Assembly (NCBI RefSeq): GCF_000703045.1
Contig: NZ_JNLJ01000005.1
Span: 411,023 to 475,022 of the forward strand
Origin: Persephonella sp. IF05-L8
GTDB lineage: Bacteria; Aquificota; Aquificia; Aquificales; Hydrogenothermaceae
Length of the DNA: 64,000 bases
Direction of reading: 5' to 3'
Position 1 is the first letter of the stretch. Every line of letters starts with the position of its first letter. Below, in pieces: positions 8,867 to 32,435 of this stretch. Made by a program: the position numbers and the translations under genes. The notes below the pieces were generated by a model that had not been told where the DNA came from, made no database searches, and saw only the letters and a program-made list of their open reading frames with translations.

Positions 8867-9850
8867 ATGGAATATTTTGAGAAGATATTAGAGAGTATAG
8901 AAGACCCATTAATTGTTGTTTCTAAAGAAGGAGATATCATCTACGCTAACCAGGCAGGTCATTTTCTAAAATCCCAGATAGGAAAATCTAAGCTCAATCA
9001 ATTATTCTCTGAGCTATTATCTATGGAAGCAATTAAAACAGGTCGTTCCGTAAAGGGAATTTTTAAAGAGATTAACAATAACAAATTTTTGATAGATGTC
9101 TTTCCTTTTGAAAACAAAGGAATAACACTGCTTGTAAGGGATATAACCAGATTTGTTGAACTTGAAGAAGTGGCCAGAAAAGAAGGACTGATAATAACCA
9201 TTTCAAAACTGTTATCATCTATATTCCATGATATGAAAGGTCCAGTTGGAGGAATAAAAGGAGCAGCCCAGCTTCTTAAAGAGGATATAAATGACAAAGA
9301 GCTTGTGGAGGATATACTATACGAAATCAAAAGAATAGAAAGTTTGATTAATGAAATCACCAATATTACAAAACCTGTTCCCCTTAGAAAAAGAGAGATA
9401 AATATACACAAATTAATTGATGAAGCTATAAAATCTCTGGAAAAACAATATCCAGAAGTGAAATTTGAAAGGCTGTACGACCCAAGTATCCCTGACCTTT
9501 TTGTTGACCCTGATTATATGCTAAGGGTGCTTATAAACATAATAAAAAATGGTATTGAAGCTACAGACAAAAAAGGAATAATCAGAATATCTACAGGAAT
9601 ATCTTGGGACAAGGTTTACTCACCTGCAGGAAATAAGATTTTTATCAAAATAAAAGATAGCGGTTCTGGAGTTCCAGAAGATATGATAGATAAACTCTTT
9701 CTTCCATTTGTCTCAACCAAAAAAACAGGAATGGGTATCGGATTATCATCCTCTTACAAGATAGTAAAAGACCACGGAGGTGTTTTAAGATATATAGGTA
9801 ATTCAACATTTGAAATACTGCTTCCCATATCAGATAGAGGTAAGAAATGA
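8867..9850 (+). CDS. NtrB-like cytoplasmic sensor histidine kinase
   Basis: A 327-residue kinase without membrane segments. Residues 1-100 form a PAS domain (PLIVVSKEGDIIYANQAG), then a HisKA domain with the phosphorylated His at 121 in FHDMKGPVGGIKGAAQLL, then an HATPase domain with the N box (NIIKNGIEAT), G1 (DSGSGVP) and G2 (GMGIGLS). NtrB kinases usually have HExxNPL; the variant HDMKGP is kept in frame with an otherwise intact domain. It overlaps the NtrC-type regulator by 4 bp and is its cognate partner. The signal is unknown; nitrogen control is one possibility but no glnB or glnA gene is nearby. Confidence 0.9.
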   Translation: MEYFEKILESIEDPLIVVSKEGDIIYANQAGHFLKSQIGKSKLNQLFSELLSMEAIKTGRSVKGIFKEINNNKFLIDVFPFENKGITLLVRDITRFVELEEVARKEGLIITISKLLSSIFHDMKGPVGGIKGAAQLLKEDINDKELVEDILYEIKRIESLINEITNITKPVPLRKREINIHKLIDEAIKSLEKQYPEVKFERLYDPSIPDLFVDPDYMLRVLINIIKNGIEATDKKGIIRISTGISWDKVYSPAGNKIFIKIKDSGSGVPEDMIDKLFLPFVSTKKTGMGIGLSSSYKIVKDHGGVLRYIGNSTFEILLPISDRGKK

Positions 9851-30108: not shown

Positions 30109-30951
30109 ATGTTAGGGATTTTAGGTGGAAGTGGACTTTATAATATTGATGATATAAAAGTTTTAGAGGAAAAAAGAATTTTAACCCCTTATGGAGAACC
30201 TTCTGATAACTACATTATTGCAGAATATAAAAACAAAAAAGTTGTGTTTCTTCCAAGACATGGAAGAGGCCATAAATACCCGCCTCATCTTATAAATTAC
30301 AGGGCAAATATATGGGGATTTAGGAAGCTTGGCGTTGATAGGATTTTATCGATTAGTGCTGTTGGCGGAATAAATCCTATTTTAAAGCCCGGGGATATTG
30401 TGCTATCTGACCAGTTTTTGGATTTTACAAAGGTAAGACCGGTTACTTTTTATGAGGGAATTTATACAATAAAGGATGATGAAGATAATCAGGACGACCT
30501 TGTAAATGAGTATTTATCAAATGATAGGGTTGTCCATATAGATGTTACAAATCCTTTCTGTCCTGATATGAGAAATGTTTTAAAAAATATCTTAAAAGAT
30601 ATGGGAATTCGTTTCCATACTAAAGGAACTTATGCGGCAACCGAGGGTCCCAGACTTGAAACGGCAGCTGAGATAAAGGCTCTTGGATTACTTGGTGCAG
30701 ATGTTGTGGGAATGACCCTTGTTCCTGAGATAGTTTTAGCCCGTGAACTTGCTATGCACTTTGCTTCTGTGAACGTGGTTACTAATCTGGCAGCAGGAAT
30801 TTCGGAAGAAAGGCTTACTTCAGATGAAGTTATTCAGATGATGCATCAGAAAAATGAGGATATCAAACAGCTTGTTCTGAGATTTATAGAAAATCTTCCA
30901 GAAGAGCTAAACTGTAGTTGTAAGGATGTGTTAAAAGGAGCTGCTATATAA
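30109..30951 (+). CDS. mtnP: S-methyl-5'-thioadenosine (or thioinosine) phosphorylase
   Basis: A 280-residue purine-nucleoside phosphorylase of the MTAP family. It begins LGILGGSGLYNID, has the phosphate-binding PRHGRGHKYPPHLINYRAN (about 49-67), GTYAATEGPRLETAAEIK and GADVVGMTLVPEIVLARELAM. It cleaves MTA (by-product of polyamine and ethylene-like reactions) to adenine and 5-methylthioribose-1-phosphate. Whether adenosine or inosine is preferred cannot be fixed by eye. GGAGAC precedes ATG 30109. The gene stands alone; the CRISPR array lies downstream in convergent direction. Confidence 0.92.
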   Translation: MLGILGGSGLYNIDDIKVLEEKRILTPYGEPSDNYIIAEYKNKKVVFLPRHGRGHKYPPHLINYRANIWGFRKLGVDRILSISAVGGINPILKPGDIVLSDQFLDFTKVRPVTFYEGIYTIKDDEDNQDDLVNEYLSNDRVVHIDVTNPFCPDMRNVLKNILKDMGIRFHTKGTYAATEGPRLETAAEIKALGLLGADVVGMTLVPEIVLARELAMHFASVNVVTNLAAGISEERLTSDEVIQMMHQKNEDIKQLVLRFIENLPEELNCSCKDVLKGAAI

Positions 30952-31172: not shown

Positions 31173-31350
31173 ATTGTAATACCCTCATTAAACGGGTCAG
31201 TTTCAAGATTGGCATCCAGAGTGGGAGATGGAGATATTCATCGTCGCAATACCCTTATTAAGCGGGTCAGTTTCAAGAGAGTCAACTCAGTCCTTATTTA
31301 GGCTGTTAGATGAAAGTCGCAATACCCTTATTAAGCGGGTCAGTTTCAAG
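31173..31350 (-). CRISPR. Orphan three-repeat, two-spacer CRISPR array, probably read from the minus strand
   Basis: Three 35-bp repeats lie at 31173-31207, 31243-31277 and 31316-31350, separated by unique spacers of 35 bp (31208-31242) and 38 bp (31278-31315). The two right-hand repeats are identical; the left one differs at five positions, as terminal repeats often do. Each contains an ACCC/GGGT hairpin. On the minus strand the repeat ends with ATTGCGAC, the 8-nt 5' tag known from type III crRNAs of Thermus, so transcription toward lower coordinates is likely. A TTGACA-17-TATTCT promoter on the minus strand at 31453-31425 fits. No cas gene is in the window. Confidence 0.85.
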
Positions 31351-31375
31351 AGCCCCCTCTGTAATCCTTGAAACT
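31342..31375. repeat. Inverted repeat at the leader-repeat junction
   Basis: AGTTTCAAG (31342-31350, the leader-side end of the first repeat) and CTTGAAACT (31367-31375, in the leader) are perfect 9-bp inverted copies around a 16-nt loop. It is part repeat and part leader, at the point where new spacers would be inserted. Confidence 0.7.
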
Positions 31376-31424
31376 CAACATATTCAGCTTCCAAGAAACC
31401 TTTGCTCTGTACAGACCTGTTATT

Positions 31425-31453
31425 AGAATACTAATTTTCCTTGATTTTGTCAA
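31425..31453 (-). promoter_or_regulatory. Promoter of the CRISPR leader
   Basis: On the minus strand: -35 TTGACA at 31453-31448, a 17-bp spacer, and -10 TATTCT at 31430-31425. Transcription would begin near 31418, about 70 nt before the first repeat. The rest of 31454-31589 is AT-rich with no gene. Confidence 0.65.
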
Positions 31454-31589
31454 ATTTAAAATCTCAATATTGTCTCAATTACAAAATCCAGATTTTAAGC
31501 CCCTTAGAGAAGATTTTATGATTTATATCATATTCCTATCCGGTACAGATTAGATGTCAGATTTTTAAAAAATTCATAAGATATTTTAT

Positions 31590-32435
31590 TTAAAGTTTAA
31601 AGGGATTTCGGACAGAGCCCAGAATGTCTTTCTGGGTTTTTAGTTTGCCTGTGCATACATTATCCTTCTCAAGTAAATAAATCTGGTCTTGTGTAACCGG
31701 CGGCTCCGGTAATATCTGCATAAAAGGAACCATAATTTGTAATACAGAAAGAGGCATTTCAAAAACAGGTCTTTTTCTTCCTATATATCCTAAAGCAAAT
31801 TGAAAAAGCTCTTTATAAGACACAATTCTATTGCCACAAAGCTCAATAATTTCATTATTCAGTCCGTTCTCTATTCCCTTTAAAACAACATCAACCACAT
31901 CATTTATATGCACAGGCTGAACTTTTCCTTTCGGCGCAAATAAAAATGGAGCGATTAACGATAACTTCCTTAAATCATCAAACAGTTTTTGACCTTTACC
32001 AAGAATTATTGAAGGCCTTAATATAAGATAGTTTAATCCTGAACTAATTATGATTTCTTCTGCTTCTGCTTTTGTTTTTGCATATCTACTTTTTGAGTTT
32101 TTGTCTGCTCCAAGGGCAGATATATGGATAAATTTTTTAACCGAACTTTTTACTGAGCCCTCAACAAGCTGTCTGACATACTCAACATGAACTTTTTCAA
32201 AGGTTATATCTTTATTTTCTAAGAGTATTCCAATGGTGTTTATTACTATGTCAGGTTTGTATTCAATTACAATATCAGATAGAGGTTCTTTAAATGGAAC
32301 TACTATTCCATTGGTAATTTCTGATTTTGATTGAGATAAATTTCTTACAGGGAGAATTAAATCATACCTCCCTTCAAGAGCGTCTAAAATATGCCCTCCC
32401 ACAAAACCTGTGCTTCCAGTAAGAAGAATTCTCAT
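31590..32435 (-). CDS. NDUFA9-like atypical SDR (NAD(P)-binding)
   Basis: A 281-residue extended SDR. The Rossmann loop TGSTGFVGGHI (about 7-17), INTIGILLENKDITFEKVHV, ALGADKNSKSRYAKTKAEAE with the SDR tyrosine context, and LRPSIILGKGQ match the complex I NDUFA9/YwnB-type atypical SDRs. Such proteins bind NAD(P)(H) and act on quinone, ubiquinone synthesis or lipid substrates; specificity is unknown. The ATG overlaps the diguanylate cyclase stop by 4 bp. Confidence 0.85.
   Translation of the reverse strand: MRILLTGSTGFVGGHILDALEGRYDLILPVRNLSQSKSEITNGIVVPFKEPLSDIVIEYKPDIVINTIGILLENKDITFEKVHVEYVRQLVEGSVKSSVKKFIHISALGADKNSKSRYAKTKAEAEEIIISSGLNYLILRPSIILGKGQKLFDDLRKLSLIAPFLFAPKGKVQPVHINDVVDVVLKGIENGLNNEIIELCGNRIVSYKELFQFALGYIGRKRPVFEMPLSVLQIMVPFMQILPEPPVTQDQIYLLEKDNVCTGKLKTQKDILGSVRNPFKL

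What the first reader, a model, noticed from the sequence alone, without database searches (positions are those of the whole stretch)
31173..31350. Orphan minimal CRISPR array with a type III-like tag and its own promoter
Three 35-bp repeats and two spacers (35 and 38 bp) sit alone between mtnP and an NDUFA9-like gene, without cas genes. Read on the minus strand the repeat ends ATTGCGAC, the 5' tag known for type III crRNAs of Thermus, and a TTGACA-17-TATTCT promoter lies at 31453-31425 ahead of the first repeat. The last repeat in that direction is degenerate. It could be served in trans by Cas6 and a type III complex encoded elsewhere, or be a relic kept for a regulatory crRNA.
Basis: partly seen in the sequence, partly recalled or inferred. 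Interest (0 to 1): 0.6.

Follow-up and report, generated by a model that had tools for sequence, protein, structure and literature searches.

The report
Stand-alone type III CRISPR mini-array
A short bacterial immune-memory cassette (a CRISPR array with its own conserved promoter region) sits alone in a Persephonella chromosome and is most likely processed by a matching Cas6 enzyme 41 kb away and used by a type III complex about 140 kb away; it is a sound new example of a known arrangement rather than a new system.

Summary
Window 31173-31350 has three 35-nt repeats and two spacers (38 and 35 nt), read on the minus strand; this is not a chance match. It is a genuine CRISPR array, with a 223-bp leader (31351-31573) 95-96% identical to arrays at other loci in relatives. 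The array is orphan only locally. The genome (Persephonella) has a second Cas6 41 kb away, beside a two-repeat array of a sister repeat. Its only type III effector (III-C-like, Csx11) lies about 140 kb away. A separate type I-B system uses an unrelated repeat. Relatives carry the same repeat in arrays of up to 15 repeats, next to cas1/cas2 and a CARF gene, or a CalpL-like gene; the sister repeat lies by a III-D operon. At the same mtnP locus, another strain of the species and another species keep leader, promoter and terminal repeat, but every spacer differs. That fits immune memory and argues against a conserved regulatory crRNA. The spacers match nothing searched, self included. The cognate adaptation module is absent and the arrays are very short, so the locus is probably usable memory that rarely grows. 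New member of a known kind. Use by III-C is inferred; no RNA data.

The parts
31351..31573 (-). CRISPR leader, 223 bp, repeat family A
   Evidence: 95.1% and 96.0% ungapped identity over exactly 31351-31573 with leaders at other loci in G025 and G008; homology stops at 31573
31518..31531 (.). Palindrome ATGATTTATATCAT in the leader, CRP/FNR-like (ATGA-N6-TCAT)
   Evidence: Identical in all five A leaders; a similar box in the B leaders; 17 nt shared exactly with a B leader. Regulator binding is inferred
31425..31453 (-). Promoter TTGACA-17-TATTCT
   Evidence: Consensus scan, 10 of 12 matches; conserved in all five leaders
31316..31350 (-). Repeat 1 (leader-proximal), with 4-bp hairpin ACCC/GGGT and tag ATTGCGAC
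31278..31315 (-). Spacer 1, 38 nt
   Evidence: no match outside the array in 41 family genomes (up to 3 mismatches), phages, plasmids, or IMG/VR by exact or degenerate patterns
31243..31277 (-). Repeat 2, identical to repeat 1
31208..31242 (-). Spacer 2, 35 nt
   Evidence: no credible match
31173..31207 (-). Terminal repeat, hairpin kept, tag degenerate (ATTACAAT)
   Evidence: same degenerate end in another strain of the species (G028)
30109..30951 (+). Flanking mtnP-like gene (MTA/MTI phosphorylase family)
   Evidence: same neighbour in G028 and G019
31590..32435 (-). Flanking SDR/NDUFA9-like gene
   Evidence: same neighbour in G028 and G019

Best explanation
A small stand-alone CRISPR array of a type III system. 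A minus-strand transcript starts from the conserved leader promoter. The genome's second Cas6 (41 kb away, beside an array with a sister repeat) cuts each repeat just after the ACCC/GGGT hairpin and leaves the 8-nt tag AUUGCGAC on each crRNA. The two crRNAs are loaded into the only type III effector of the genome, the III-C-like Csx11/Cmr complex about 140 kb away, and act as immune memory against unsampled viruses or plasmids. Shown: array, leader, conserved promoter, sister array at cas6, presence of the effector, spacer differences between strains at the same locus. Inferred: transcription, the Cas6 cut, loading into III-C, interference.
For: (1) Repeats and spacers are real. (2) Leader of 223 bp conserved at 95-96% at other loci, with identical promoter hexamers. 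(3) Cas6 above the Pfam cut-off at C5:400.7-401.6k, about 320 bp from a B-repeat array with the same core and tag. (4) Of the four other genomes with A/B repeats, three carry this Cas6 at 94-100% identity and G008 has a 60% homologue; more distant Cas6 homologues often sit by variant repeats with the same ATTGCGAC end. (5) Csx11 and Cmr-like genes are present, the only RAMP cluster in the genome. (6) The I-B system has its own cas6 and an unrelated repeat. (7) In relatives the arrays lie by a III-D operon with cas1/cas2 (G019, B repeat), by a CalpL-like SAVED gene (G025, A repeat) and by a CARF/DxTHG gene plus cas1/cas2 (G008, A repeat). (8) Same locus, different spacers in G028 and G019. (9) Spacers of this array class lie antisense to Shine-Dalgarno-ATG sites 12 of 79 times and never in sense, as expected for transcript targeting.
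Against: No RNA data. No protospacer found for either spacer. The III-C operon has no array of its own nearby and its Csx11 is not found (E<=0.001) in G019, G025 or G008, so the pairing with III-C rests on its being the only type III effector here. Cas6-2 scores below the NCBIfam equivalog cut-off (35.4 vs 58.65 bits) and has no sequence match to a solved structure. The hairpin alone is no stronger than in shuffles (z = -0.76). The cognate cas1/cas2 module is absent.
Confidence: 0.8

Rival explanations
1. Decaying leftover: the array is still a type III array by descent but no longer contributes to immunity, because the adaptation module is gone and the array is shrinking.
For: Only a I-B Cas1 in the genome; arrays of 3 and 2 repeats versus up to 15 in relatives; the strain G028 has 2 repeats here and a single repeat at the cas6-linked locus.
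Against: Leader, promoter hexamers, internal repeats and Cas6 are intact and strongly conserved; a type III effector is present.
Confidence: 0.14
2. Regulatory crRNA locus that silences a host gene (CreA-like, or as proposed for some orphan arrays).
For: Small array, no adjacent cas genes, own promoter.
Against: Spacers differ completely at the same locus in the same species and in another species; no host match at up to 3 mismatches in G000; best ungapped matches in 521 kb of fetched loci are no better than shuffles. Weaker, seed-only pairing was not tested.
Confidence: 0.04
3. Anti-cas orphan array that blocks entry of a competing CRISPR-Cas system, as described for E. coli I-F orphan arrays (PMC8616872, citing Almendros 2016).
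For: Precedent; the cognate adaptation genes are absent here and present in relatives.
Against: No match of either spacer in 41 family genomes at up to 3 mismatches, and none better than shuffles in the fetched cas loci.
Confidence: 0.02

Closest known systems
Dispersed or stand-alone CRISPR arrays served in trans by cas genes elsewhere in the genome
   Same: Leader plus repeats plus spacers at a distance from cas genes, sharing the repeat type of a cas-linked array
   Different: Very short (2 spacers); the matching cas1/cas2 module is missing from the genome
Thermus thermophilus type III-A (Csm) crRNAs with 5' handle AUUGCGAC (PMC8157118)
   Same: Identical 8-nt tag at the 3' end of the repeat
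   Different: The likely effector differs (III-C, Csx11); common ancestry of the arrays was not tested
Type III loci of related Hydrogenothermaceae (G019 III-D with SAVED effector; G025 CalpL-like SAVED gene; G008 CARF gene with cas1/cas2)
   Same: Same repeat family (A or sister B); same A leader in G025 and G008; same Cas6 in G019 and G025
   Different: Those arrays are linked to cas or effector genes and mostly longer; the window array stands alone

Membership tests
CRISPR array | Near-identical direct repeats separated by unique spacers of similar length | tested here: met
   35-nt repeats, spacers 38 and 35 nt
CRISPR array | Leader with promoter on one side, degenerate repeat at the distal end | tested here: met
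   223-bp conserved leader; terminal repeat tag ATTACAAT
CRISPR array | Spacer turnover among strains | tested here: met
   Same locus in G028 and G019 with different spacers
CRISPR array | Spacers match mobile elements | tested here: inconclusive
   No protospacer found
Type III array | 8-nt crRNA tag of the type III kind downstream of a repeat hairpin | tested here: met
   ATTGCGAC; 4-bp hairpin directly before it; the hairpin is weak
Type III array | Cognate Cas6 in the genome | tested here: met
   Cas6-2 beside a sister-repeat array; its cutting activity is not shown
Type III array | Type III effector (Cas10 family plus RAMPs) in the genome | tested here: met
   Csx11, Cmr4-, Cmr6-, Cmr1- and Csx10-like genes; Csx11 has no GGDD motif
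Type III array | crRNAs bound to the type III complex | not testable with these tools
   Needs RNA or pull-down data
Type I-B array | Repeat shared with the I-B locus | tested here: not met
   The I-B array repeat is GTTTTATCTGAACTATATGGGATAGAAAG
CreTA / regulatory mini-CRISPR | Spacer matching a host promoter, conserved with its target | tested here: not met
   Spacers not conserved at the locus; no host match at up to 3 mismatches

The most novel reading that the evidence does not exclude
Leader-array cassettes and one Cas6 form a stable, portable crRNA supply in this genus, while the type III effector that uses them is exchanged freely (III-C here, a 57%-identical III-C in another strain of the species, III-D in G019, III-B in G025), with both leader kinds under one CRP/FNR-type regulator.
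Probability: 0.25. Interest if true: 0.5.

Novelty: new member of a known kind. Interest (0 to 1): 0.3.

Why it matters
It gives a clean natural case in which a CRISPR leader and its Cas6 outlive changes of effector subtype, and in which array position, leader and terminal repeat stay while all spacers change. If the III-C pairing holds, it would also give a defined crRNA source for a type III-C complex, a subtype with few studied examples (general knowledge, not surveyed here).

Tried and rejected
Host-gene regulation: rejected because spacers are not conserved at the locus and do not match the host. Anti-cas array: no match to cas loci of relatives. Use by the I-B system: its repeat and Cas6 are different. 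Spacer origin: phages, plasmids, IMG/VR (exact 20-22-mers and degenerate peptide back-translations) and 41 family genomes gave no credible protospacer (one weak plasmid hit, E = 0.3). Known RNA family: none in Rfam (only chance-level hits). Chance repeat: excluded. Solved-structure match for Cas6-2: none. One regex repeat scan timed out and was replaced by a Hamming scan. No genome search was left to look for an empty mtnP site in other species.

Full report
The observation. The two leader-side repeats are identical; the distal one has lost its tag (ATTACAAT instead of ATTGCGAC). A search for the repeat at up to 3 mismatches expects no match by chance, and elsewhere in the genome there is no further copy at up to 3 mismatches. 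The TTGACA-17-TATTCT promoter is at 31453-31425.

The leader. An alignment of the region upstream of the first repeat with four other arrays of the same repeat shows a block of 223 bp, window 31351-31573, that aligns without gaps at 95.1% and 96.0% to arrays at other loci in G025 and G008; homology ends there. The promoter hexamers and their 17-nt spacing are unchanged in all five. A palindrome of the CRP/FNR kind (ATGA-N6-TCAT, 31518-31531) is also unchanged, and a similar box recurs in the otherwise different leader of the sister repeat family. The motif alone is not rare in this window (3 found, 2.3 expected), so the argument rests on conservation.

What serves it. The window is C5:411023-475022 of a 1.83-Mb genome of the genus Persephonella, judged from a 100% identical Cas6 in a named Persephonella bin. 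The genome holds three relevant loci. First, a I-B system with its own cas6, cas1, cas2 and array, whose repeat is unrelated. Second, a III-C-like operon at about C5:293-301k with Csx11 (817 bits) and Cmr-like genes, the only RAMP cluster; Csx11 has no GGDD motif, as expected for a III-C Cas10 without cyclase activity (general knowledge). Third, a second Cas6 at C5:400721-401587, 41 kb from the window array and about 320 bp from a two-repeat array (family B) that shares the core CTGACCCG..AGGGTATTGCGAC with the window repeat.

Relatives. Five of 41 family genomes carry A or B repeats. G000, G028, G019 and G025 hold this Cas6 at 94-100% identity; G008 has a 60% homologue (G008 is a bin with 9% contamination, so its array contig may be foreign to it). 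Homologues at 55-80% identity often sit by variant repeats with the same ATTGCGAC end. In G019 a B array is beside cas1/cas2 and a III-D-like operon with a SAVED protein. In G025 the A array of 13 repeats is beside a CalpL-like SAVED gene, and that genome has a III-B operon with another cas6. In G008 the A array of 15 repeats is beside cas1, two cas2 and a CARF/DxTHG gene. So the repeat family belongs to type III systems, and the effector subtype varies while repeat, leader and Cas6 stay.

Same locus, other spacers. The mtnP-SDR locus carries the A array also in G028 (same species, flanks 97-99% identical) and G019 (other species, flanks 87-89%). Leader, terminal repeat and trailer are shared, but G028 has one spacer and G019 four, none in common with the window. 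At the cas6-linked locus G028 has a single repeat and no spacer where the window genome has two repeats and one spacer. This is spacer gain or loss, and it speaks against a conserved regulatory guide. A Cas1 of the A/B kind is missing from this genome, so present growth of the arrays is doubtful.

Targets. Neither spacer matches anything outside the array in 41 family genomes at up to 3 mismatches, in phage or plasmid records beyond a chance-level hit, or in IMG/VR by exact or degenerate patterns. Against 521 kb of fetched loci, including cas operons, the best matches are as poor as those of shuffled spacers.

Mechanism. Most likely: minus-strand transcript, Cas6-2 cut after the ACCC/GGGT hairpin, two crRNAs with AUUGCGAC handles, loading into the III-C complex, targeting of transcripts of unsampled invaders. 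The handle is the one used by T. thermophilus Csm (PMC8157118). Across this array class in the family, 12 of 79 distinct spacers are antisense to a Shine-Dalgarno-ATG site and none lies in sense, against 1.8% for random stretches of the window. Strand bias of type III spacers through selection is known from Thermus (PMC7515739). Transcription, cutting and loading are inferred.

Verdict. A real array, locally orphan, most likely served in trans within the same genome; new member of a known kind, interest modest.

Noticed in passing
L013, L059, L060, L087, L089, L092, L093, L094 (arrays with ATTGCGAC-type repeats): Spacers of these type III-like arrays are enriched for being antisense to a Shine-Dalgarno plus ATG: 12 of 79 distinct spacers, 0 in sense, 1.8% in random stretches. 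The own cas6-linked array's single spacer is one of them. Not seen for the two window spacers.
   Followed up: partly
L055:2400-4778 (G019) and L060:934-3174 (G008): Adaptation modules beside these arrays hold two cas2 genes, one clear cas1 and one further protein in the place of a second cas1 that matches Cas1 only marginally (L055, E = 0.0026) or not at all (L060); the two are not alike by BLAST.
   Followed up: partly
L054:4954-5280, L055:4763-5331, L056:5045-5370 (G019): Several spacers are G+C-rich and share pieces of one sequence (GGTGGGCCTTTACCCTCCGGGGACGGGGA), as if drawn from a repeated or structured element.
   Followed up: no
L059:1844-5552 (G025): Gene cluster beside the A array with a CalpL-like SAVED protein (best PDB matches 8b0r and 7qda) and neighbours without family match, which could be a CalpL/T/S set.
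   Followed up: partly
window 31518-31531 and L013 about 9138-9152: A similar CRP/FNR-like palindrome is present in two otherwise unrelated CRISPR leaders, suggesting common regulation.
   Followed up: partly
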